A stretch of 38,067 nt of DNA, taken from positions 1-38,067 of the IMG/VR virus record IMGVR_UViG_3300011013_000038. The stretch is one strand, 5' to 3'. The notes below the pieces were generated by a model. The model saw only the letters and a list, made by a program, of their open reading frames with translations. It made no database searches and was not told where the DNA came from. A program made the translations under genes and the position numbers. Shown in pieces: positions 23,210 to 34,404 of this stretch (position 1 is its first letter; each line of letters opens with the position of its first letter). The DNA comes from a virus.

Positions 23210-23528
23210 ATTTTTAGAACCAGAGAACGTAGACAGTAAAATGTTTCGCCGATGTGTTAAAGTTATATTAAAACAATCACCACTACAACTTCATATGACT
23301 AATGATTTATGTCTAAAACGATATAAAAAAAATATCGTGGACTTTATATCTTATTTAATTAAAATAGGAGAAAAATTAGAAGAATATGAAGATTGTAGTA
23401 AATTGATTATACAACAAAAAGATTATAAAACGTGGGTACGAATTAATTTAGATACTATTAATAGCATTTCGAAATTAATAAAAAATACCGAAGAAAATAT
23501 AAAAAATGACAATAGAAAAAAGCATTGA
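23199..23528 (+). CDS. Small unknown protein ahead of folE
   Basis: 109 residues, mostly helical and lysine-rich (FRRCVKVILKQSPLQLHM, KNIVDFISYLIKIGEKLEEY, LDTINSISKLIKNTEENI). No family was recognised. It is the first gene after a TTGGAT-17-TATATT promoter, has no strong ribosome site, and overlaps folE by 23 bases, so it is probably the leader gene of the folE operon. Confidence 0.6.
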   Translation: MKFEFLEPENVDSKMFRRCVKVILKQSPLQLHMTNDLCLKRYKKNIVDFISYLIKIGEKLEEYEDCSKLIIQQKDYKTWVRINLDTINSISKLIKNTEENIKNDNRKKH

Positions 23529-24168
23529 ATTAGTTAGAGAAGGATTTGCTAATGGAGTAGTTCCAGGAGGTCCTTTATCAGATCAAGAAAGACAACAAAT
23601 GATACAAAATGCAGCGTATGCATTTGGTAATTTTTTAGATGCACTAGGATGTCATTGGCAAGATGATCCAAATTCGGATAATACTCCAATGCGTGTTGCT
23701 AAAGCATATGTAAATGATTTATGGGCAGGTAGATACGAAGGAGCTCCAGATATTACAGCATTTCCATCTGATGGTTATGATGGTATGGTATTTGAAGGCG
23801 GCATTCCTTTAACATCGATGTGTTCACACCACCACCAAACTATATTAGGCAAAGTTCATGTAGCTTATATCCCAGGGGAAGATAGCAAAGTAATTGGATT
23901 GAGCAAATTAAATAGATTAGTAGAACATTTTGCTAGAAGAGGAGCAATACAAGAACAATTAACAGTTGCAATACATAATGCTATTGATACTATTATATGT
24001 AATAATAAAGGAGTAGCAGTTATGGTAGAAGCTACTCATAATTGTGTACAATGTAGAGGAGTTAAACATGGCGGAGCATCAATGAAAACTTCAAAGCTAA
24101 CAGGAGCATTTAAAGATGATAGTGCAACTAGAGCAGAGTTTTACGAATTTATAAGAGGTTATAATTAA
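23506..24168 (+). CDS. folE: GTP cyclohydrolase I
   Basis: 220 residues, standard FolE length. Zinc ligands are visible as CSHH (Cys106, His109) and Cys180 in THNCVQCRG. The active-site signature GKVHVAYIPG is followed by KVIGLSKLNRLVEHFARRG. It converts GTP to dihydroneopterin triphosphate, the first step of 7-deazaguanine (and of folate) synthesis. QueD and QueE follow, so here it most likely feeds base modification of phage DNA. The start overlaps the previous gene; MTIEKSIELVREGF is the first sensible start. Confidence 0.95.
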   Translation: MTIEKSIELVREGFANGVVPGGPLSDQERQQMIQNAAYAFGNFLDALGCHWQDDPNSDNTPMRVAKAYVNDLWAGRYEGAPDITAFPSDGYDGMVFEGGIPLTSMCSHHHQTILGKVHVAYIPGEDSKVIGLSKLNRLVEHFARRGAIQEQLTVAIHNAIDTIICNNKGVAVMVEATHNCVQCRGVKHGGASMKTSKLTGAFKDDSATRAEFYEFIRGYN

Positions 24169-24179
24169 AATTTAAATAT

Positions 24180-24335
24180 ATGAAACAACCAGACGCAAAA
24201 AAACACCAAACAATAAGTTTTATTAAATCAGGAATAAGAATATTAGGTTATATATTAATTCCTTTTGATTTACCTTTAGCAGCAGGTATTCTAGTATTTA
24301 GTGAATTTATAGGAATAGTAGAAGAATTAGTATAA
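24180..24335 (+). CDS. Small membrane protein
   Basis: 51 residues. After a polar start (MKQPDAKKHQ) nearly the whole protein is hydrophobic (IRILGYILIPFDLPLAAGIL and VFSEFIGIVEEL), with a possible re-entrant or double membrane segment. Small proteins with this LGY-x-LIPF / SE-x-IGI-x-EEL pattern are familiar in marine phages, but their role is unknown. The stop overlaps the start of queD (TAATG). Confidence 0.7.
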   Translation: MKQPDAKKHQTISFIKSGIRILGYILIPFDLPLAAGILVFSEFIGIVEELV

Positions 24336-24814
24336 TGGGAAAATTTCAATCAACAAAAATATTTGACAACTACTCAGTTGCAATAAGACAATGGAAAGCA
24401 CAACATTCACATTGTCAGTTATTACATGGGTATGCTTTAAAATTTAAAGTATGGTTTGAATCTAATACTCCATTTGATGAAAATATGGGGTTAGATGATA
24501 TGAATTGGATTGTAGACTATGGTGGATTTAAAGATAAGCCAATTGGAAATGGTTTAAAATCATGGATGAATGATATGTGGGACCATACCTTATTAATTCA
24601 AAAAGATGATCCTTATTATGATATATTCGAACAAATGGGACAAATGGGATTGGCTAAAGTACATTTTTTAGATAAAATGGGAGCTGAATCTTGTGCTAAA
24701 TTAGTTTATGATCATTTTAATGATGTTTTATCTAAAACTGATGCTGGAAGATGCAAAGTAGTAAAGGTAGAATGTTTTGAAAATGATAAAAATTCATCAA
24801 TATATTATGGGTAG
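24335..24814 (+). CDS. queD: 6-carboxytetrahydropterin synthase
   Basis: 159 residues. The PTPS-fold signature is WKAQHSHCQLLHGYALKF: His24/His26, catalytic Cys27 and His31, with Tyr33 where most homologues have the third zinc His. WDHTLL supplies the catalytic Asp83-His84 pair and GAESCAKLVYDHF the substrate-anchoring Glu. It converts dihydroneopterin triphosphate to 6-carboxytetrahydropterin, the second step of 7-deazaguanine synthesis. One-base overlap with the upstream small gene. Confidence 0.88.
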   Translation: MGKFQSTKIFDNYSVAIRQWKAQHSHCQLLHGYALKFKVWFESNTPFDENMGLDDMNWIVDYGGFKDKPIGNGLKSWMNDMWDHTLLIQKDDPYYDIFEQMGQMGLAKVHFLDKMGAESCAKLVYDHFNDVLSKTDAGRCKVVKVECFENDKNSSIYYG

Positions 24815-25034: not shown

Positions 25035-25318
25035 AAACACTATTTACAGTAATAATTTCATCAGTGTCAGGATTTTTTCTAGGAAGACATTTGAAGTTTA
25101 GATCTAAAAACTACGGAGTTACAAGAAAAATGTTTTTAACACTCGAACGGGGTGAAATAGACAGAAAAATAGAAATTGCCTTAGATTTAGAAGACTATGG
25201 TGCAGCAATGACATTACACAGAAAAAGAGAAAAATTAGATAATAAGTTAAAACGAGTTAAAAAAAGAGAAGAAAAAAGAAATGCACGACAAAAATCTAAT
25301 AGAAGAACCAAATCTTAG
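25031..25318 (+). CDS. Small N-terminally membrane-anchored basic protein
   Basis: 95 residues. An N-terminal hydrophobic segment (LFTVIISSVSGFFLGRHL, residues 3-20) is followed by a charged helical region and a very basic tail (KRVKKREEKRNARQKSNRRT). The likely topology is one membrane anchor with the basic tail in the cytoplasm. No family was recognised. Its 3' end overlaps queE by 38 bases in another frame. Confidence 0.6.
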   Translation: MKTLFTVIISSVSGFFLGRHLKFRSKNYGVTRKMFLTLERGEIDRKIEIALDLEDYGAAMTLHRKREKLDNKLKRVKKREEKRNARQKSNRRTKS

Positions 25319-26117
25319 TAAAATAATGGGAAGGAAAATGGGGGCCTTAAAACGAATAGAAGATTACAATAAAGTATTACCCATTTGTGAAGTATACCGA
25401 TGTGTTCAGTCAGAGGGCAGTAGATTTGGAAGACCAACTATTGCTGTTAGAACAACAGGATGTACCCATCGGTGTTATTTTGGAGAAGGCGGTTGGTGCG
25501 ATTCTTGGTATACAAGTATCCACCCAGAAAAAGGAACATTTTGTTTCAATGACATTGTAAAAATATATGATGAAAATCCTCATGTAAAAGAAATGATGTT
25601 AACTGGTGGTTCGCCTACAATGCACAAAACATTAGTAAATGAAATAACACATTTTGCTAAAAAGAGAGGAATATTTGTTACAATTGAAACAGAGGGTAGT
25701 CATTTTCTAGAAACAGATTATCCAATTGATTTAATATCACTTTCGCCCAAGTTTTCAAATTCAATTCCTAAATTAGGAACCAAAACACCTAAGGGAGTTG
25801 ATGTAGATGAAAGAATGATCAAACAACATAATAAATTTAGATTAAACACTACTACAGCATTTAAGACCCTTCAATATCATAAAGATTATCATTTCAAGCC
25901 AGTATGGGATGGTACGGAAGAAAATTTACAAGAAATTGAAGAATATAGGCAACTTATGTTTATTCCAAAAAATAAAACATATATAATGCCGGCAGGAGAT
26001 ACAAGAGAAGAATTAATACGAATGTATCCTATAGTATTCGAGATGGTAGCAGAACACGGATATAATATGACAGGAAGAGACCATATTATAGCATATAACA
26101 CAGAAAGAGGAGTATGA
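25281..26117 (+). CDS. queE: 7-carboxy-7-deazaguanine synthase (radical SAM)
   Basis: 278 residues from 25281; the ATGs at 25326 and 25338 are in frame and could be the true start. Signatures are CVQSEGSRFGRPT (the Gln-x-Glu-Gly loop of QueE) and GCTHRCYFGEGGWCDSW, the cluster loop, which reads Cys61-x3-Cys65-x7-Cys73 instead of the common spacing. MLTGGSPTMH is the SAM-binding GGxP motif. It contracts carboxytetrahydropterin to 7-carboxy-7-deazaguanine. The stop overlaps the next start (GTATGATG). FolE, QueD and QueE together are a complete route from GTP to this base. Confidence 0.9.
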   Translation: MHDKNLIEEPNLSKIMGRKMGALKRIEDYNKVLPICEVYRCVQSEGSRFGRPTIAVRTTGCTHRCYFGEGGWCDSWYTSIHPEKGTFCFNDIVKIYDENPHVKEMMLTGGSPTMHKTLVNEITHFAKKRGIFVTIETEGSHFLETDYPIDLISLSPKFSNSIPKLGTKTPKGVDVDERMIKQHNKFRLNTTTAFKTLQYHKDYHFKPVWDGTEENLQEIEEYRQLMFIPKNKTYIMPAGDTREELIRMYPIVFEMVAEHGYNMTGRDHIIAYNTERGV

Positions 26118-26272
26118 TGGAAAATTTTGCAGAGGCATTTGAAATAATAGATGAAATTGAAGATTCGGCAGGAGAGTGTTGTGCAATAACATTAGACCCA
26201 GATGAAATTATAGAAAAATGTGGTAAATTACGAAATATATTACAAATTATTATAGAGGAAAATAAGTTATGA
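26114..26272 (+). CDS. Small acidic protein
   Basis: 52 residues (or 51 from the second ATG at 26117). It is mostly helical and acidic (FAEAFEIIDEIEDSAGECCA, DEIIEKCGKLRNILQIIIEE), with three Cys including a Cys-Cys pair. It is joined to queE and to the GroES-like gene by 4-base overlaps on both sides, which supports it being real. Function unknown. Confidence 0.55.
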   Translation: MMENFAEAFEIIDEIEDSAGECCAITLDPDEIIEKCGKLRNILQIIIEENKL

Positions 26273-26574
26273 AAATGAAACCAATCGGAGATCAAGTACT
26301 TTTAAAAGAACATGAAAAAGCTGATAAAACAGAAGGCGGTATTATATTAGTTGATGGTGCATATGATGAAGAATTTGTATATGCAGATGTAATATCAGTT
26401 GGAGCCGGATTGTTTACACAAACAGGAAATAGAATACCAATGACTGTAAAAGTTGGAGATCGTATTTTAATTAGCAAGAACAATTTAGGTGGACAAAAGA
26501 AAGTTAAATTAGATGGGGAAGAATATATTTTAGTGAGGGAAATGGAAATATCAATGGTATCGGTAGAACAATGA
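26269..26574 (+). CDS. GroES-like co-chaperonin (gp31-type role)
   Basis: 101 residues, GroES/Cpn10 size. The order is KPIGDQVLLKEHEKADKTEG, then the mobile-loop region GGIILVDG, YADVISVGAGLFTQTG, VKVGDRILISKNNLGG and a final EYILVREMEISMV. It would cap the host GroEL, as T4 gp31 does for capsid folding. By sequence it is nearer cellular GroES than gp31. Coupled on both sides by short overlaps. Confidence 0.88.
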   Translation: MKMKPIGDQVLLKEHEKADKTEGGIILVDGAYDEEFVYADVISVGAGLFTQTGNRIPMTVKVGDRILISKNNLGGQKKVKLDGEEYILVREMEISMVSVEQ

Positions 26575-27083
26575 AAAAATTAATAGACGAACACGATTTA
26601 AGTATTAAGATAAAAATACTTGCTAAACAACTTTCTGATGATCACAGAGATAGTAAAACTCCAGTAGTGGCAGTTTGCATCTTAAATGGAGGATTCATGT
26701 TTTTTGCAGACTTTGTTAGAGCAATGCCAATTGATTTAGAATGTGATTTTATGCGTGTTAAATCATATGTTAAAAAACGAAAACAAGGAGATATTGAGAT
26801 TACAAAAGATTTAGAAGTTCCTATCAAAGGAAAACATGTTTATATAATCGATGATATATTTGATACAGGCAATACAATGCGAGCAGTTATTGATTATTTG
26901 CGAGTTAAGAAACCCAAATCATTGAATATTGTCACTTTATTAAAAAGAGAAGATTCTCCAATCTATGATATAGAATGTCCAGTATATACTGTTATGGATC
27001 TTAAAGATGAGTGGGTAGTAGGTTATGGATTAGATGATGACAAAGGACATTGTAGAAATTATAAGAATATATACGAAGTTTAA
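26571..27083 (+). CDS. hpt: Hypoxanthine/guanine phosphoribosyltransferase-like protein
   Basis: 170 residues, standard length for bacterial Hpt. The PRPP loop IIDDIFDTGNT is at 92-102. VVAVCILNGGFMFFADFVR is the loop I region, and DEWVVGYGLDDDKGHCRNYK the base-binding end (usually VVGYGLD-x-x-x-x-x-RN). It would join hypoxanthine or guanine to PRPP. Salvage of purines to GMP/GTP would feed FolE, an inference from the neighbouring que genes. The symbol is by function. Confidence 0.85.
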   Translation: MKKLIDEHDLSIKIKILAKQLSDDHRDSKTPVVAVCILNGGFMFFADFVRAMPIDLECDFMRVKSYVKKRKQGDIEITKDLEVPIKGKHVYIIDDIFDTGNTMRAVIDYLRVKKPKSLNIVTLLKREDSPIYDIECPVYTVMDLKDEWVVGYGLDDDKGHCRNYKNIYEV

Positions 27084-27759: not shown

Positions 27760-30270
27760 ATGTATCAAAATATAGCATTTCACAAAAAGACAAACACAAT
27801 GCACGTGTGGGATGACGAATTAGGTCATCAAACAATAAATTTCCAACCATATGGATACATTCCAGACGAAAATGGAAAATATGTTTCATTAAATGGACAA
27901 AAATTAAGTAAAGTTTCTGGAAATCACAAGGATAATAGGAATGCATATGAATCTGACTTAAATGAAGAAGTTAGAACATTAATAGACTTATATTATGATT
28001 CGGATAAAGTATCAACCGGACATTCTGATTTCTTTTTTGACATAGAAACAGCAAAAGACGAATATGGATATTCAACTCCAGAAGATGTTCGAACCCAAAT
28101 AACTTCCATAGCATATTATGATAAAACAGGTAAAGACCGAAGAGTTCTAGTTTTAGATGAACGTAAACGACTATCTGATGATATTATTTATGGAGATAAT
28201 GTAACTATTGAATCTTTTGGTACTGAAGCTGATATGTTAATTAAATTTATTAATTACTTTTCAGCAATACAGCCAACAGTAATTACAGGGTGGAACACAG
28301 ATGGATATGATATTCCATATTTAATAAATCGCATTAAAAAAGTATTAGGTCCAAAGTCAGTAAAAAAATTATCTCCAGTAGGAATTGTAGAATGGAATAA
28401 ACATCGTGAAAAATATAAAATATTTGGGGTATCAAGTTTAGATTACTTGCCACTCTATAAAGCACAGCCAGGAAATGAAAGACCAAATTACCGATTAGAC
28501 ACAATAGCTAAGTTTGAGCTAGGCAAAGGTAAAATTGAATATGATGGAGATTTAGATTTATTATTTGAAACAGATATTAATAAATTTATAGAATATAATA
28601 TGACTGATGTCGATCTTGTTTATGAATTAGACGAAAAGTTACAGTTAATTAATTTAGCAAGAACAATATGCCACAAAGGACATGTTCCTTATGAAGATGT
28701 ATACTATTCATCGAAATACCTAGATGGCGCAGCAATAGTAGATTTAAAAAGAAATGGATTGGTAGCTCCAAATAAACAATTTAGGTTTGTCGAAGAAGAA
28801 CGACAAGATAAATTAGCAGGAGCATATGTAATGCCACCAACACCAGGATTATATAAATGGATCTATGACTTAGATTTAACTTCACTATATCCTAGTATAA
28901 TAATGAGTCTTAATATTTCGCCAGAAACAAAAGTAGGCGTAATTTCCAATTGGAAACAAGAATCATTATTAAGCAAAGACCCAGTTAGTGTAAAAATTAA
29001 TGGACAGCCAATTAATGATGTAAAATCATGGTTAATTGAGAATAAATTTACAGTTGCAAGTAATGGGGTAGTATATGATACTAGAGGTGTTGGATTTTTA
29101 CCTAGAATATTAAAAAAGTGGTTTGCCGAACGTGTTGAGTTTAAAACTGAAAGAGATAAACACAAAGTAGGATCTGAAAAATATAAATTTTACGATGCAG
29201 AGCAATTAGCACAAAAAACACTACTTAATAAGTTTTATGGTGTATTAGGATTAAAAACATTTAGGTTTCATGACTTAGACAATGCAGGAGCAATAACAGC
29301 CACCGGCCAGAGTGTAATTAAGTTTTCTGCAAAGGTCATTAATGCTTATTATAAAAAAGAAACAGGAAAAAACAATTTTAGAAATGCAACAGGCAAAAGA
29401 GTAGATTTTTCATTCTATACAGATACAGATTCAACATTTGTTTCTAGTTTGCCAATTATAGAAAAGCGATATCCTAATTTTGATGAAAATAATGAACAAT
29501 TTATGATTGAGAAAACAAATGAAGTTGCATCAGAGATACAAAATCATGTAAATGAAATGTATGATCAATATGCATTATATTTTCACAACACAAAAGAACA
29601 TCGGTTTCAGATTAAACAAGAATATGTAGCAAAATCAGGAGTGTGGATAGCAAAAAAGAGGTATGCCCAATGGGTAATATTCAAAGAAGGAAAATCCACC
29701 GATAAATTAGATATAAAGGGCTTAGATGTAGTAAGATCATCTTTCCCTGTTGATTTCAAAGAAATAATGGAAGAGACTCTTTGGTATATACTAAAAGAAA
29801 GATCAAAATTAGATACAACTGATATGATAATGGAATTTAAGGATAAAATACAAACATCTGATATTTTAAATGTAATGAACAACACCGGTGTAAAAGAGAT
29901 TAGCAAATACACTAAAAAAAGGAAGCCGTTTTCTGGTTACCTTAAGGGAACACCAGTTCATGTTAAATCTTCTATTAATTATAATGATATGTTACATCAT
30001 TTAGGCATTGATAAAAAATTCGCAGCTATTAATGATGGAGATAAAATTAAATGGGCATATCTTAAGACAAATGCAATGGGGTTTGATAGTATTGCATTGA
30101 GGGGATATGAAGACCCAAGACAATTAACAGAATTTGTTGAAAGATATATCGATAGAAATAAAATATTTGATAGTGCACTGAGAGGCAAAATAGATGATTT
30201 TTATTTAGCAATGAATTGGGATAACTTACCAGAAAATAATAATGTAAATAAGTTCTTTTCATTTGGATAA
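27760..30270 (+). CDS. 43: Family B replicative DNA polymerase (gp43-like)
   Basis: 836 residues; T4 gp43 is 898. Exonuclease motif FFFDIETA is near residue 91, followed by TVITGWNTDGYDIPYL (Exo II) and YNMTDVDLVYELD (Exo III). Palm motifs are DLTSLYPSIIMSLN near 372, KTLLNKFYGVLG, and YTDTDST near 553. Proofreading and polymerase sites both look intact. It copies the phage genome with the clamp at 33697. The start abuts the preceding stop. The last codons and stop (TTTGGATAA) carry the -35 box of the next promoter. Confidence 0.96.
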   Translation: MYQNIAFHKKTNTMHVWDDELGHQTINFQPYGYIPDENGKYVSLNGQKLSKVSGNHKDNRNAYESDLNEEVRTLIDLYYDSDKVSTGHSDFFFDIETAKDEYGYSTPEDVRTQITSIAYYDKTGKDRRVLVLDERKRLSDDIIYGDNVTIESFGTEADMLIKFINYFSAIQPTVITGWNTDGYDIPYLINRIKKVLGPKSVKKLSPVGIVEWNKHREKYKIFGVSSLDYLPLYKAQPGNERPNYRLDTIAKFELGKGKIEYDGDLDLLFETDINKFIEYNMTDVDLVYELDEKLQLINLARTICHKGHVPYEDVYYSSKYLDGAAIVDLKRNGLVAPNKQFRFVEEERQDKLAGAYVMPPTPGLYKWIYDLDLTSLYPSIIMSLNISPETKVGVISNWKQESLLSKDPVSVKINGQPINDVKSWLIENKFTVASNGVVYDTRGVGFLPRILKKWFAERVEFKTERDKHKVGSEKYKFYDAEQLAQKTLLNKFYGVLGLKTFRFHDLDNAGAITATGQSVIKFSAKVINAYYKKETGKNNFRNATGKRVDFSFYTDTDSTFVSSLPIIEKRYPNFDENNEQFMIEKTNEVASEIQNHVNEMYDQYALYFHNTKEHRFQIKQEYVAKSGVWIAKKRYAQWVIFKEGKSTDKLDIKGLDVVRSSFPVDFKEIMEETLWYILKERSKLDTTDMIMEFKDKIQTSDILNVMNNTGVKEISKYTKKRKPFSGYLKGTPVHVKSSINYNDMLHHLGIDKKFAAINDGDKIKWAYLKTNAMGFDSIALRGYEDPRQLTEFVERYIDRNKIFDSALRGKIDDFYLAMNWDNLPENNNVNKFFSFG

Positions 30271-30291
30271 TACAAATAAATTTATTATAAT
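30263..30291 (+). promoter_or_regulatory. TTGGAT-17-TATAAT promoter of the DNA-modification operon
   Basis: TTGGAT 30263-30268 overlaps the last two codons and stop of the polymerase gene (TTTGGATAA). Spacer 17 bp, TATAAT 30286-30291, and 11 bp to the ATG at 30303. Confidence 0.7.
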
Positions 30292-30302
30292 ATATAAAAA
30301 TT

Positions 30303-30743
30303 ATGTACGGAAAAGATCAATGGATAGGCAGAGAAGTAGAAGGTCGTTACTCAGATATGATGACTTTCTTTATTAGAGCATTAGGCGACGGAATCAATGT
30401 CGACGACCTATCCCAATACCCACATTATTATTTTACAATTGAATATATGAAAAATTGGATATCCAATCCTAGCCCAAATGGCCTTAATGCAATTCGTGAA
30501 ATATTAGATACTACTAATAGTGTAGTGACATTAGAAGCAAATGATCATTTATTTGAATCTATACCACCTGATTTATTTAATAGGTGTCATATTATATATC
30601 GAATAGTAGACGATGCAGTACAAAAATTAAAAGAAACAGATACATTGAGTATTGACGCTGGGTGGTATAGAGTACACCAAGTAACCAAATGTAATATGAT
30701 GGAAATTAATCCAGACAATTATAAATTTGATCAAGAAATATGA
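30303..30743 (+). CDS. Unknown protein leading the DNA-modification operon
   Basis: 146 residues. It contains WIGREVEGRYSDMMTFFIR near the N-terminus, a YPHYYFTIEYMKNWI segment, and an IIYRIVDDAVQKLKETDT helix followed by AGWYRVHQVTKCNMME. No known family. It is the first gene after a TTGGAT-17-TATAAT promoter (gap to ATG 11 bp, no Shine-Dalgarno) and overlaps the next gene by 4 bases. Its linkage to PTPS-like, glycosyltransferase and DpdA genes suggests a role in DNA modification; that is inference. Confidence 0.6.
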   Translation: MYGKDQWIGREVEGRYSDMMTFFIRALGDGINVDDLSQYPHYYFTIEYMKNWISNPSPNGLNAIREILDTTNSVVTLEANDHLFESIPPDLFNRCHIIYRIVDDAVQKLKETDTLSIDAGWYRVHQVTKCNMMEINPDNYKFDQEI

Positions 30744-31084
30744 AATATTCAATAGTAGTATCATTTAGCGTAGAAGGATTTCATAATTGGCCAGAAGCAA
30801 AGGAAATATTTCCAGAAGTAGGATTTTTATCTGATAGGCATAGGCATATGTTTGGATTTCGATGTTATGCAAAAGTAAGTCATACAGATAGAGATGAAGA
30901 ATTTATTTTAATGCAAAGAAGATTAAAAAAACAACTAAGAACAAATTTTGGTGGTAATATATTAGAATTTGGAAGAATGAGTTGTGAGGACATTGGAGAA
31001 TGGATATTAAATAATAACCCTGGTTACCTATATAAAGTTGAAGTATGGGAAGATTGGGAAAATGGAGCAATAATAGAAAGATGA
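30740..31084 (+). CDS. PTPS/QueD-fold-like protein
   Basis: 114 residues. The layout echoes the PTPS fold: SFSVEGFHNWPEAKEI at the N-terminus, FLSDRHRHMFGFRCYAKV (compare H-x-H after the first strands in QueD), MSCEDIGEWIL (compare the TAENLA segment) and VEVWEDWENGAII (compare the closing strand with Glu). It lacks the catalytic Cys and the DH pair of the true QueD at 24335. It may therefore bind a pterin or deazaguanine rather than catalyse the QueD reaction. Coupled by 4-base overlaps to both neighbours. Confidence 0.6.
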   Translation: MKYSIVVSFSVEGFHNWPEAKEIFPEVGFLSDRHRHMFGFRCYAKVSHTDRDEEFILMQRRLKKQLRTNFGGNILEFGRMSCEDIGEWILNNNPGYLYKVEVWEDWENGAIIER

Positions 31085-32253
31085 AAAAAGTATTTTATTT
31101 TGGACTAGAGCCATTAAAGGCTAGATATACATATCAATTATCAAAAGAATGGATGCCAGCAACTTTTCAACCATATGTTGATGCTGGTAAAATTGAATTT
31201 ATTGATATAAAAGGAGAATTTGACCCAAATCAACAAATAAAGGTTGGCGCGGTATTAGATGCTATAGGCAGAGGTAAATTTGCTATGAGTCAATGTAGTA
31301 ATTTTCTTCATGCTTTAAATATTGGAGCAGTTAGTGATGGAGATGCTATATTTCTTCAAGATTATTGGCATCCAGGAATTGAATCTATATTATATGCATT
31401 AGATTTATATGGCATAAAAGTAGAAATATATGCAATGCTTCATGCACAAAGTGTAGATGAATATGATTTTACATATCCAATGCGAGAATGGATGCGAGGA
31501 TTTGAATTAGGTTTAGATAAAAGAATGACAGGGATATTTGTAGGAAGTACAATTCATAAAGACCAATTAAGACAGGCAGGATTTGAAGCCCCAATACATG
31601 TTGTTTCATTACCACTACATTTAGAAATGACTCGAGATAAATATCCTGACTATGATCCACACAAAAGAAAAAAACAAGTTGTTGTTTATTCTAGTAGGTT
31701 AGACAAAGAAAAAAACCCATTTTTTATGATGGCAGTTGCTGAGCAATATCTAGAACAATTTACTGGAGCCGAATGGCACGTAACAACATCAGGAGAAATA
31801 TTTAAATCAATGCTACCTGGCGTAATAGATGCATTATATGAATTAGCAGAAAGACAACCTAGATTTAAATTATTAAATAATCTTACAAAGCAAGAATATT
31901 ATAAAGAATTAGCAGAAGCAAAAATACAATTCAATTGCTCATTACAAGATTATGTATCATGGACAGTATTAGAATCAACTACATTTGGGTGTGATATGGT
32001 ATTTCCAAATTTCAGGTCATTTCCAGAATTTATACCACCAAGTAGATTATATACACCATTCAATGTGAATTCGGCAGTTATTAGATTGCACGAAGTGATG
32101 CAACAAAGTCAACCAAATTATAATATAGCACATTTAGCAGATTTAGGTAGACAAATGGAAGGTTACATTGTAGTGAATGGAATTGATCAAGAAATTAATA
32201 TTTGGCACGAAGCTGAATATTGCAAACATTTATTAAATAAAAACGAGGAATAA
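31081..32253 (+). CDS. GT-B fold glycosyltransferase
   Basis: 390 residues from the ATG at 31081, which overlaps the previous stop (ATGA); an in-frame start at 31045 exists but lies inside the upstream gene. The N-terminal half has VFYFGLEPLKAR, DAIFLQDYWHPG and GIFVGSTIHKDQL. The C-terminal nucleotide-sugar domain begins with VVVYSSRLDKEKNPFFMM (about 199-216), continues with NLTKQEYYKELAEAKIQF and ends near VLESTTFGCDMVFPNF, a GT1/GT4-like Glu-rich donor site. It is not related by eye to the T4 alpha- or beta-glucosyltransferases. Its position between a PTPS-like gene and DpdA makes a role in DNA base glycosylation worth testing; surface glycan modification is the alternative. Confidence 0.8.
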   Translation: MKKVFYFGLEPLKARYTYQLSKEWMPATFQPYVDAGKIEFIDIKGEFDPNQQIKVGAVLDAIGRGKFAMSQCSNFLHALNIGAVSDGDAIFLQDYWHPGIESILYALDLYGIKVEIYAMLHAQSVDEYDFTYPMREWMRGFELGLDKRMTGIFVGSTIHKDQLRQAGFEAPIHVVSLPLHLEMTRDKYPDYDPHKRKKQVVVYSSRLDKEKNPFFMMAVAEQYLEQFTGAEWHVTTSGEIFKSMLPGVIDALYELAERQPRFKLLNNLTKQEYYKELAEAKIQFNCSLQDYVSWTVLESTTFGCDMVFPNFRSFPEFIPPSRLYTPFNVNSAVIRLHEVMQQSQPNYNIAHLADLGRQMEGYIVVNGIDQEINIWHEAEYCKHLLNKNEE

Positions 32254-32255
32254 TT

Positions 32256-32435
32256 ATGAAAATTGATGCAAATGGTATTGAAGAAATACGAAATACAATT
32301 GAAACACCACTTACTGCATTGGCTGAAAAAATGAGTGATAAAGGTGTATTAGATCATCAACTAGCAGAAATCGTAACCTTTGTGTTAGGAAATTTGCAAA
32401 AGGTAGGATCTGAACCGTGGGAGGTAGTGGACTAA
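32256..32435 (+). CDS. Small protein between glycosyltransferase and DpdA
   Basis: 59 residues (MKIDANGIEEIRNTIETPLT ...), probably two helices with an acidic end (GSEPWEVVD). A good GAGGAA ribosome site precedes the ATG, and the TAA overlaps the ATG of the next gene. No family recognised. Tight packing supports a real gene that works with its neighbours. Confidence 0.65.
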   Translation: MKIDANGIEEIRNTIETPLTALAEKMSDKGVLDHQLAEIVTFVLGNLQKVGSEPWEVVD

Positions 32436-33685
32436 TGGATAAGAATTTTATATATTATCCATCGCTATCTGCAGGAAGTATGGTATCTGCATTTAAAAAG
32501 AATACAAAATTTGAAGACGGAACTACATGTAGATTCTTTTCAAAAGAGTATCCTGAACAATGGAGGCATCCATACTTTCTAATTACTGCGGGACACCATT
32601 TCAAAAAAATGGATTTTCGTGATCAGTTAGGATTAGACGATGGTGTATTAGTATTTGGAGATTCAGGAGGATTCCAGATAGCAACAGGTGCACTTAAATG
32701 GGATAAAACTATAAGAGAGCGAATATTTCATTGGTTAGAAGCCAATTCAGATGTGGCCGCAAATTTAGATATACCACCCAGAGCAAAATATGAAAATAGG
32801 TTTGCAGAATCCATGGAAATTAGTTTTGATAACTTTAAATGGTTTGAAAAACATCAAAGTGGAAAAACGAAATTTTTAAATGTTATACAAGGTACATATA
32901 ATGAAGAATATTCAGAATGGTATCATAAATTTAAAGACTTTGACTTTAATGGGTGGTGTATTGGCGGTCCTAAGAAATTAGTGGATTTTATGTATGTAAT
33001 TGCATTGATGTTACATAATAGGGAATTTGAAAAAGCACATGTACAATATGTACACTTGTTAGGGATATCAAAAATATCAGATTTCTTTATATTAGCAACA
33101 TTACAAAAATTGATGAATGAATTAACTGATAATAGGATACTATTTTCTACAGATTCATCATCGCCAGGACAATATCCGGTATTTGGAACATATTTGCATT
33201 CTAGTAATTATAAAACACAAACATTCACAGAATTATATTTTCCAAAAAATAATGAATATAGAAGAAAATCACACGCAAATAGGACGAATAAAACAGTTGC
33301 AATTGACACTACTAAACACGTGCCTTGTTCTTTGGATTGTCCTGCTTGTAAAGATTTTACTTATGATTATCTCGGGGGACAAACTACTACGGGATTAGAT
33401 AGGTATAGTCAAGAAGGAATGCCTAGGATGGTTATTCACAATACACATCTTTATGTTGAAATGGCTAAAGATGTAAGTAAATTAGTAAACAATCACGTAG
33501 AGCTTTTAGAAACAGCAATACCGAAGGATTTGTTTGATGTTATTTCATCATTACATGAAATGTTTGATGATCCTGACAAAGCATTACAAGTTTATGCAAC
33601 ATATAAAAAGACATATAAGAAATTCGGTGGAGATAGTATATCAACCACTGATGCAATTAAATTTAACGAATTTTTTAAATTTTAA
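32435..33685 (+). CDS. dpdA: DNA 7-deazaguanine transglycosylase (DpdA / TGT-like)
   Basis: 416 residues from the ATG at 32435; a GGGAGG ribosome site lies 10 bp upstream, so the in-frame GTG at 32417 is unlikely. TGT-type residues are DSGGFQ (76-81, with Asp76), LDIPP (111-115), IGGPK (176-180) and STDSSSPG with Asp240 at the nucleophile position. A zinc site is visible as Cys298, Cys302, Cys305 and His335. In phages DpdA exchanges guanine in DNA for a 7-deazaguanine made by FolE/QueD/QueE, protecting against restriction. It shares the window with these enzymes but sits in a separate operon. Confidence 0.88.
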   Translation: MDKNFIYYPSLSAGSMVSAFKKNTKFEDGTTCRFFSKEYPEQWRHPYFLITAGHHFKKMDFRDQLGLDDGVLVFGDSGGFQIATGALKWDKTIRERIFHWLEANSDVAANLDIPPRAKYENRFAESMEISFDNFKWFEKHQSGKTKFLNVIQGTYNEEYSEWYHKFKDFDFNGWCIGGPKKLVDFMYVIALMLHNREFEKAHVQYVHLLGISKISDFFILATLQKLMNELTDNRILFSTDSSSPGQYPVFGTYLHSSNYKTQTFTELYFPKNNEYRRKSHANRTNKTVAIDTTKHVPCSLDCPACKDFTYDYLGGQTTTGLDRYSQEGMPRMVIHNTHLYVEMAKDVSKLVNNHVELLETAIPKDLFDVISSLHEMFDDPDKALQVYATYKKTYKKFGGDSISTTDAIKFNEFFKF

Positions 33686-33696
33686 AAAGATAAAAC

Positions 33697-34404
33697 ATGG
33701 AAAAAAGTAAATTACAATCATTTATTAACAGATATTACCTCGCAGGGAATTGTGAGGCAGTAACTGTAAAATCAAATGGTCAATCAGTTAATTGTGAATT
33801 AATTGATGCAGACCAAACAGTAGTAGGAAAGATAAAGTGGAAAACAAATCCATTTATGTCTGGAGAATTAGGAATCAATCATACAGGAGCGTTAACAAGA
33901 ATGTTATCAGCTGTTGGAGAAAATATTGATATTGAAGTTCAAGAATCTGCTGGTAAGAATTATGCAATGCGAATTCAAGAAGGAAGTACTACGATGACAT
34001 TTATGTTAGCAGATACAACCGTTATACCAGCAGTGCCTACTATTAATGCAGAGCCAGAATATACTGTTACAATTGACATTGATAATGAATTTATAGATAA
34101 ATTTATTAAAGCAAAAAATGCTTTGCCAGATGCAAAGAATTTTGCAGTACAAGTACAAAATGGTAAAATTAAATTTATTATTAATTATACAACTATTAAT
34201 GCAGATAATGTAACATTTGATTTAGACGGAGGAACTACTCCAATGGAACCAATTTGTTTTTCTGCAGATAAATTAAAAGAAGTATTAACTGCGAATAAAG
34301 GAGATGATGGGAAAATGTATATTTCAGCTGATGGATTAGCGAGAATTGATTTTACTGGAACTGATTTTGATTCAAATTATTGGTTAGTACAATTACAAAA
34401 TTAA
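33697..34404 (+). CDS. 45: Sliding clamp (gp45-like)
   Basis: 235 residues; T4 gp45 is 228. The N-terminal half ([40 protein letters not shown]) and the C-terminal half ([50 protein letters not shown]) form the two pseudo-symmetric clamp domains. It tethers the family B polymerase and, in T4, activates late promoters with gp33/gp55. The TATTTATAAT boxes could respond to it. The gene follows DpdA by 11 bp. Confidence 0.9.

What the first reader, a model, noticed from the sequence alone, without database searches (positions are those of the whole stretch)
30303..33685. Operon pairing a glycosyltransferase and a PTPS-like protein with DpdA: possible glycosylated 7-deazaguanine DNA
Seen: five tightly coupled genes (unknown, PTPS-like, GT-B glycosyltransferase, 59-residue protein, DpdA) behind one strong promoter. 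Known: DpdA inserts 7-deazaguanines into phage DNA, and T4 glycosylates its own modified cytosine. Inference: the glycosyltransferase decorates the inserted deazaguanine or a linked group, giving a hypermodified base. I know of no described system that joins a GT-B enzyme to DpdA in this way. The alternative is that the enzyme acts on a cell-surface or virion glycan.
Basis: partly seen in the sequence, partly recalled or inferred. Interest (0 to 1): 0.88.

Follow-up and report, generated by a model that had tools for sequence, protein, structure and literature searches.

The report
Sugar enzyme in phage deazaguanine cluster
Many unrelated phages, including this one, keep a sugar-transferring enzyme and a small altered copy of a queuosine-pathway enzyme beside the genes that make 7-deazaguanine and swap it into DNA, which predicts a sugar-decorated DNA base that I found in no paper I could read, though no chemistry has been done.

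Summary
The genes are real. 30303-33685 holds five tightly coupled genes between phage DNA polymerase and sliding clamp: unknown, PTPS-like, GT-B glycosyltransferase (GT), 59-aa, DpdA. The promoter claim does not exceed chance. QueC was not found in 20 records of this clade.

The GT link is strong. With the GT alone as bait, 36 of 36 distant loci (50% identity or less) carry PTPS-like, DpdA or CDG genes nearby: 34 PTPS-like, 29 DpdA, 29 CDG genes. Six lineages of isolated phages agree. Predicted structures place the GT with GT4 enzymes (BshA, Z 25.8) and the PTPS-like protein with QueD (Z 12.9); the latter keeps the zinc histidines but lacks QueD's catalytic residues.

Best reading: CDG is processed by the PTPS-like protein (perhaps decarboxylated), DpdA inserts the base, the GT adds a sugar. 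Shown: genes, folds, catalytic residues, linkage. Inferred: reaction, acceptor, donor, timing, modified DNA. Only three of the five genes belong to the recurring module. I found no description in the papers held; Cui 2023 and the 2024 review were unavailable. New variant of a known kind.

The parts
23506..24168 (+). FolE, GTP cyclohydrolase I
   Evidence: Pfam PF01227 160 bits, E 4e-47
24335..24814 (+). QueD, 6-carboxytetrahydropterin synthase
   Evidence: Pfam PTPS 42.2 bits against 22.4; phrog_2389 QueD-like E 8e-34
25281..26117 (+). QueE, CDG synthase (likely start 25326 or 25338)
   Evidence: phrog_2076 QueE-like E 3e-49; best NCBIfam model is QueE, below its cut-off
26571..27083 (+). hypoxanthine/guanine phosphoribosyltransferase-like; role in the pathway only inferred
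   Evidence: NCBIfam TIGR01203 149.7 bits, cut-off 150; recurs near FolE in this clade
30303..30743 (+). 146-aa protein of unknown function, clade-specific neighbour, probably not part of the module
30740..31084 (+). PTPS-like protein (phrog_17812), QueD fold without QueD catalytic residues; candidate CDG-processing enzyme
   Evidence: (E 7e-22)
31081..32253 (+). GT-B, GT4-like glycosyltransferase
32256..32435 (+). 59-aa protein, present in 49 of 140 near loci, not part of the core module
32435..33685 (+). DpdA-like guanine transglycosylase
   Evidence: Pfam TGT 32.4 bits; catalytic residues; PDB profile hits

Best explanation
The window carries a 7-deazaguanine DNA-modification system with a sugar-adding branch. 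FolE, QueD and QueE turn GTP into 7-carboxy-7-deazaguanine (CDG). QueC, which would make preQ0, was not found; in its place a small QueD-fold protein (the PTPS-like gene) processes CDG, most likely by removing the carboxyl group to give 7-deazaguanine. DpdA swaps the base into phage DNA, and the GT4-like glycosyltransferase attaches a sugar to the deazaguanine, on DNA or on the free base, giving a bulky base that should block host nucleases. Shown here: the genes, folds, conserved catalytic residues, missing QueC in the records searched, and gene linkage across unrelated phages. Inferred: the PTPS-like reaction, the acceptor, the sugar, the order of steps, and modified DNA itself.
For: GT-only bait: 36 of 36 distant loci have a partner gene nearby, 34 PTPS-like, 29 DpdA, 29 FolE/QueD/QueE. 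68 of 68 GT/PTPS-like pairs lie on one strand, median gap 148 nt. PTPS-like-only bait: 41 of 45 loci with CDG genes; 34 with GT, 11 with gp042. DpdA-only bait: 25 of 36 distant loci have the GT. Isolated phages Deifobo, BUCT-ZZ01, ACP17, X1 and Phosso have GT and PTPS-like inside CDG clusters; PhiXhv-15 has the GT beside a GAT-QueC fusion and a PIG-L deacetylase. Catalytic residues kept in GT and DpdA. QueC absent in 20 of 20 clade records, control positive in 14 of 14; records with QueC lack PTPS-like where looked for. One 127-kb record without PTPS-like in the operon has it elsewhere.
Against: No chemical or genetic evidence exists here. Fold and linkage do not fix the acceptor. If the PTPS-like protein decarboxylates CDG, C7 carries no hetero-atom for ordinary O- or N-glycosylation, so C-glycosylation or another acceptor is needed. 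PTPS-like also occurs without the GT (11 of 45 loci; GT absent from the whole phiST, D479 and Bakedbeans records). Some DpdA loci lack the GT. Many IMG/VR contigs are fragments and some are near-duplicates, so the counts are not independent events.
Confidence: 0.68

Rival explanations
1. The system makes only an unsugared 7-deazaguanine or CDG DNA base; the GT uses a sugar nucleotide for another purpose that merely travels with the cluster, such as a small-molecule or protein acceptor.
For: PTPS-like and CDG genes work without the GT in phiST-type phages; GT fold alone does not tell the acceptor.
Against: GT is adjacent to PTPS-like or DpdA across unrelated lineages with rearranged order; no GT locus without a pathway gene among 36.
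Confidence: 0.17
2. The GT modifies a host surface or virion glycan and its place beside DpdA is accidental.
For: Phage GT4-type enzymes often act on surface polysaccharides (general knowledge; cyanophage clusters in PMC7824862).
Against: All 36 distant homologues found by GT alone lie with deazaguanine genes; a single copy of this GT per long record.
Confidence: 0.04
3. The GT decorates another DNA base, for example hydroxymethylcytosine as in T4.
For: T4-like relatives glucosylate hydroxymethylcytosine (general knowledge).
Against: BUCT-ZZ01, ACP17 and X1, complete genomes with this GT, lack the thymidylate synthase/dCMP hydroxymethylase family; linkage is to deazaguanine genes.
Confidence: 0.04
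4. The transglycosylase and GT act on tRNA, giving a glycosylated queuosine-like tRNA base, comparable to mannosyl- and galactosyl-queuosine.
For: TGT family is shared by tRNA and DNA enzymes; glycosylated queuosine is known in animal tRNA (general knowledge).
Against: Genes sit among replication genes; no QueC in the clade records; DpdA homologues of phages act on DNA (PMC6884629).
Confidence: 0.07

Closest known systems
Phage 7-deazaguanine DNA modification (DpdA with FolE/QueD/QueE/QueC; phages 9g, CAjan, nt-1; Hutinet 2019, PMC6884629)
   Same: FolE, QueD, QueE and a TGT-like DpdA with the catalytic aspartates
   Different: QueC not found in 20 clade records; a GT-B enzyme and a second, non-QueD PTPS-fold protein are built into the cluster
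T4-type DNA glucosylation (alpha- and beta-glucosyltransferase on hydroxymethylcytosine) and TET-associated glycosyltransferases
   Same: GT-B enzyme proposed to put sugar on phage DNA
   Different: Linked to 7-deazaguanine, not cytosine; resembles GT4 enzymes; PF20691 (TAGT) was not among its Pfam matches
BshA/MshA (GT4) with BshB/PIG-L deacetylase, bacillithiol and mycothiol pathways
   Same: Among the closest solved folds to the GT (BshA Z 25.8, MshA Z 24.0); PhiXhv-15 pairs the GT with a PIG-L deacetylase
   Different: About 9-14% identity; no thiol pathway seen; 15 other module records lack PIG-L
QueD, 6-carboxytetrahydropterin synthase
   Same: Fold of the PTPS-like protein (Z 12.9, 106 residues) and zinc histidines
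   Different: No counterpart of the catalytic Cys or Asp-His pair; own invariant H48-R51-E54 and S-C-E; a genuine QueD is also in the window
Cellulophaga phage phiST cluster (from memory of Cui 2023: 7-deazaguanine DNA and a predicted CDG decarboxylase, DpdL)
   Same: FolE, QueD, QueE and the same PTPS-like family (gp040), no QueC
   Different: No GT anywhere in the record and no DpdA of these families nearby; instead gp042 and a kinase-like gene

Membership tests
DpdA / TGT superfamily | TGT domain above the curated cut-off | tested here: met
   Pfam PF01702 32.4 bits against 26.3
DpdA / TGT superfamily | Two catalytic aspartates (TGT D102 and D280 equivalents) and guanine-pocket residues | tested here: met
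   D76-S-G-G, D112, G153, H207, D240 invariant over nine divergent homologues and again in A6; equivalence to TGT numbering from own knowledge
DpdA / TGT superfamily | Cysteine zinc site | tested here: inconclusive
   CSLDCPAC present in the window protein and close relatives but not alignable in most distant ones
DpdA / TGT superfamily | Acts on DNA and not tRNA | not testable with these tools
   needs an assay; the solved DNA-guanine transglycosylase 7ui4 matches the profile only at E 0.024
QueD (CPH4 synthase), tested for the PTPS-like protein | PTPS/T-fold | tested here: met
   model to E. coli QueD Z 12.9, rmsd 2.2 over 106 residues
QueD (CPH4 synthase), tested for the PTPS-like protein | Three zinc histidines | tested here: met
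   H15, H34, H36 invariant in 36 sequences
QueD (CPH4 synthase), tested for the PTPS-like protein | Catalytic Cys and Asp-His pair | tested here: not met
   no Cys before HxH and the Asp-His segment is missing in the alignments; so it is not filed as QueD
GT-B fold, GT4-like glycosyltransferase | Two Rossmann-like domains, GT-B fold | tested here: met
   BshA Z 25.8, rmsd 3.4, 315 aligned, over residues 1-368
GT-B fold, GT4-like glycosyltransferase | Phosphate-binding Arg/Lys and E-x7-E type motif | tested here: met
   R206, K211 and D290/E298 (D-x7-E variant) invariant over 34 sequences
GT-B fold, GT4-like glycosyltransferase | Sugar-nucleotide donor and retaining stereochemistry | not testable with these tools
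   needs enzymology
preQ0-type deazaguanine pathway | FolE, QueD, QueE | tested here: met
preQ0-type deazaguanine pathway | QueC present | tested here: not met
   0 of 20 records incl. the window, 173-kb and 169-kb contigs; control 14 of 14. The records are fragments and a host could supply QueC
DpdL (predicted CDG decarboxylase, Cui 2023) | Sequence relation to the named DpdL | not tested
   paper not held; the link through phiST rests on memory
T4 alpha-/beta-glucosyltransferase, TAGT | Family match | tested here: inconclusive
   no such Pfam match and not in the VIA-align list, which does not exclude relatives

The most novel reading that the evidence does not exclude
The PTPS-like protein strips the carboxyl group from CDG so that the electron-rich C7 of 7-deazaguanine becomes free, and the GT4-like enzyme then forms a carbon-carbon (C-glycosidic) bond there, giving a C7-glycosyl-7-deazaguanine in phage DNA: a sugar-bearing deazapurine made by a route unlike the known sugars on hydroxymethyl-pyrimidines.
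Probability: 0.2. Interest if true: 0.92.

Novelty: new variant of a known kind. Interest (0 to 1): 0.77.

Why it matters
Sugar-decorated phage DNA is known to me only on pyrimidines, and the 7-deazaguanines reported in the papers I could read carry small groups. A widespread module joining the two would add a chemical class of DNA base, give a role to a conserved phage protein family of unknown function (phrog_17812) and to a GT family mostly annotated as hypothetical, and predict nuclease resistance in many marine and jumbo phages. Several isolated phages carry it, so the prediction can be tested directly by nucleoside mass spectrometry.

Tried and rejected
Strong promoter: promoter-like sites in 29900-34000 are no more frequent than in shuffles, dropped. 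Five-gene unit: rejected, because the 59-aa gene is in 49 of 140 near loci and the first gene and the 59-aa gene have no convincing match in unrelated module phages. Surface-glycan role: tested by neighbourhood, disfavoured. Hydroxymethylcytosine acceptor: three complete genomes with the GT lack the thymidylate synthase family. PIG-L deacetylase as a general partner: absent in 15 module records, seen only in PhiXhv-15. PTPS-like as ordinary QueD: rejected by missing catalytic residues and by a separate QueD. Apparent GT loci without PTPS-like: one long record has it elsewhere; the others are short fragments. DpdA profile A3 was too divergent for a pattern scan, replaced by A6. AGT, BGT and TAGT structures were not in the VIA-align list, which proves nothing. 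Key papers (Cui 2023; the 2024 MMBR review; Iyer 2013) are not held, so prior mention of a GT partner cannot be excluded; searches in the held library found none. GT and PTPS-like divergence correlate (r 0.50, permutation p 0.0005), but shared phage ancestry alone could give this.
Full report
WHAT IS THERE. The window is a 38-kb fragment of a T4-like phage (one search gives it as a virus record; DNA polymerase, clamp loader, RecA-like and gp32 genes). Between DNA polymerase (27760-30270) and the gene in the sliding-clamp position (33697) lie five + strand genes: 146 aa, 114 aa, glycosyltransferase, 59 aa, DpdA. Starts fit coupled translation: ATGA overlaps at 30740 and 31081, a 2-nt gap before 32256, TAATG at 32435. 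The GT start given by the mechanical ORF list (31045) and the GTG start of DpdA (32417) are probably not used. The promoter statement is not supported beyond chance.

About 4-7 kb upstream the window encodes FolE (23506-24168), QueD (24335-24814) and QueE (25281-26117), followed by a hypoxanthine/guanine phosphoribosyltransferase-like gene (26571-27083). This is the route from GTP to 7-carboxy-7-deazaguanine (CDG). QueC, the next step to preQ0, was not found in any of 20 records of this clade, including contigs of 173 and 169 kb, while the control rang in 14 of 14 genomes. The records are incomplete and a host QueC cannot be excluded.

THE ENZYMES. DpdA passes the Pfam TGT cut-off, and its profile finds TGT structures (E 3e-5) and, weakly, a solved DNA-guanine transglycosylase, 7ui4. 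The positions matching the two catalytic aspartates of TGT (D76, D240, by own reading) are invariant over very divergent homologues. The GT model (pLDDT 91.7) is a GT-B fold nearest GT4-type enzymes: sucrose-phosphate synthase and BshA are tied at Z 25.9 and 25.8, and tetrahydrobiopterin glucosyltransferases are on the list at Z about 22-23. Phosphate-binding R206/K211 and a D-x7-E motif ending at E298 are invariant in 34 sequences. The 114-aa protein (pLDDT 93.8) has the QueD fold (Z 12.9). It keeps three metal histidines but lacks the catalytic cysteine and Asp-His segment of QueD, and has its own invariant set H48, R51, E54, S81-C82-E83, E104-D105. It therefore looks like an active enzyme of different chemistry.

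IS THE LINK REAL? Three separate baits were used. (1) GT alone, distant loci of 50% identity or less: 36 of 36 have at least one partner within the 9-kb flanks; PTPS-like 34, DpdA 29, any of FolE/QueD/QueE 29, gp042 none. (2) PTPS-like alone, distant loci of about 46% or less: 41 of 45 with CDG genes; 34 with the GT, 11 with a different gene (gp042 of phage phiST), none with both, none with neither; the 11 gp042 loci have no DpdA of the families searched. (3) DpdA alone: GT in 25 of 36 distant loci. GT/PTPS-like pairs are on the same strand in 68 of 68 cases, median gap 148 nt. Near relatives keep g1-PTPS-GT-DpdA-gp45-gp44 in 80 of 80 loci with all six genes. Isolated phages of different lineages repeat it with rearranged order: Pseudomonas phage Deifobo (DpdA-GT-PTPS-like-QueE), Synechococcus phage BUCT-ZZ01 (QueE-QueD-FolE-DpdA-PTPS-like-GT), Acidovorax phage ACP17 (QueD-FolE-DpdA-GT-PTPS-like-QueE), Xanthomonas phage X1 (FolE-GT-DpdA-PTPS-like-QueE) and Sinorhizobium phage Phosso (PTPS-like-GT-FolE-QueE, DpdA elsewhere). 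Rearrangement with preserved membership argues for functional coupling. Bacterial and archaeal genome bins also carry it, mostly on short contigs likely to be phage. The loci are not all independent: some contigs are near copies.

EXCEPTIONS. Xanthomonas phage PhiXhv-15 has the GT without PTPS-like nearby, but beside a glutamine-amidotransferase-QueC fusion, a PIG-L deacetylase and a GFO/IDH oxidoreductase, with DpdA elsewhere. Two further DpdA records with QueC also lack PTPS-like. PTPS-like therefore seems to stand where QueC would stand, as the next step on CDG; three records are few. A 127-kb record with GT-DpdA but no PTPS-like in the operon carries PTPS-like elsewhere. The GT is absent from the whole records of phiST, D479 and Bakedbeans, so PTPS-like does something that does not need the GT.

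MECHANISM. Most likely: GTP to CDG by FolE, QueD, QueE (established pathway, PMC13329287); CDG processed by PTPS-like, best guess decarboxylation to 7-deazaguanine; insertion by DpdA; sugar addition by the GT. The decarboxylation guess rests on the QueD fold, the absence of QueC, and memory of Cui 2023 (not held) that Cellulophaga phage phiST DNA contains 7-deazaguanine and that a decarboxylase named DpdL was predicted; phiST gp040 belongs to the PTPS-like family. If the carboxyl is lost, C7 is the reactive carbon and C-glycosylation becomes the natural proposal; if it is kept, a glycosyl ester is possible. Recurrent extra genes fit sugar tailoring: a TagD-like cytidylyltransferase between g1 and PTPS-like in 31 near loci and present in 15 of 36 distant GT loci, a Methyltransf_24 gene between PTPS-like and GT in several loci, and PIG-L in PhiXhv-15. 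None of these is proof; the cytidylyltransferase is not found in the window itself.

RIVALS. Surface glycan: contradicted by neighbourhood. Hydroxymethylcytosine acceptor: BUCT-ZZ01, ACP17 and X1, complete genomes, lack the thymidylate-synthase family. tRNA target: possible in principle, less likely given the replication-gene setting and published DNA action of phage DpdA (PMC6884629). A GT with an unrelated acceptor that merely travels with the cluster remains the most serious rival.

NOVELTY. Full-text searches of the held library found no description of a glycosyltransferase paired with DpdA. A jumbo-phage survey notes the deazaguanine system of PA5oct without a GT role (PMC7824862). The most relevant papers are not held, so this is 'not found', not 'does not exist'. 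Deazaguanine DNA and glycosylated DNA are each known; the combination is a new variant.

Noticed in passing
L166:7801-8580, L167:7695-8552, L169, L170, L172 and 11 IMG/VR loci: A ~260-aa family without a convincing Pfam match (phiST gp042, phrog_20335) takes the place of GT plus DpdA beside the PTPS-like gene and never occurs with the DpdA families searched; it could be another insertion enzyme.
   Followed up: partly
L011:3872-4267 and 75 other loci: TagD-like cytidylyltransferase (PF01467) inserted between g1 and PTPS-like in 31 near-clade loci and present in 15 of 36 distant GT loci; may activate the sugar.
   Followed up: partly
L044:1449-2048, L045, L046, L049, L136, L184, L185: Methyltransf_24-type gene found in seven loci, between PTPS-like and GT where both are held; might methylate the sugar.
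   Followed up: partly
L148:3654-7740 (Xanthomonas phage PhiXhv-15): GT next to a GATase-QueC fusion annotated as an aminotransferase, a PIG-L deacetylase and a GFO/IDH oxidoreductase: possibly an amino-sugar on an archaeosine-type base.
   Followed up: partly
window 26571-27083; L347, L348, L351-L353: Hypoxanthine/guanine phosphoribosyltransferase-like gene recurs near FolE/QueE in DpdA loci of this clade; could salvage the guanine that DpdA releases.
   Followed up: partly
L145:3010-4350 (BUCT-ZZ01); L197:14194, L199:12051: A second GT-type gene close to DpdA or PTPS-like, suggesting a disaccharide or a second sugar.
   Followed up: no
window 26269-26574; L351:3361-3663: GroES-like co-chaperonin gene (Cpn10) directly after QueE in the window, and between QueE and FolE in L351.
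   Followed up: no
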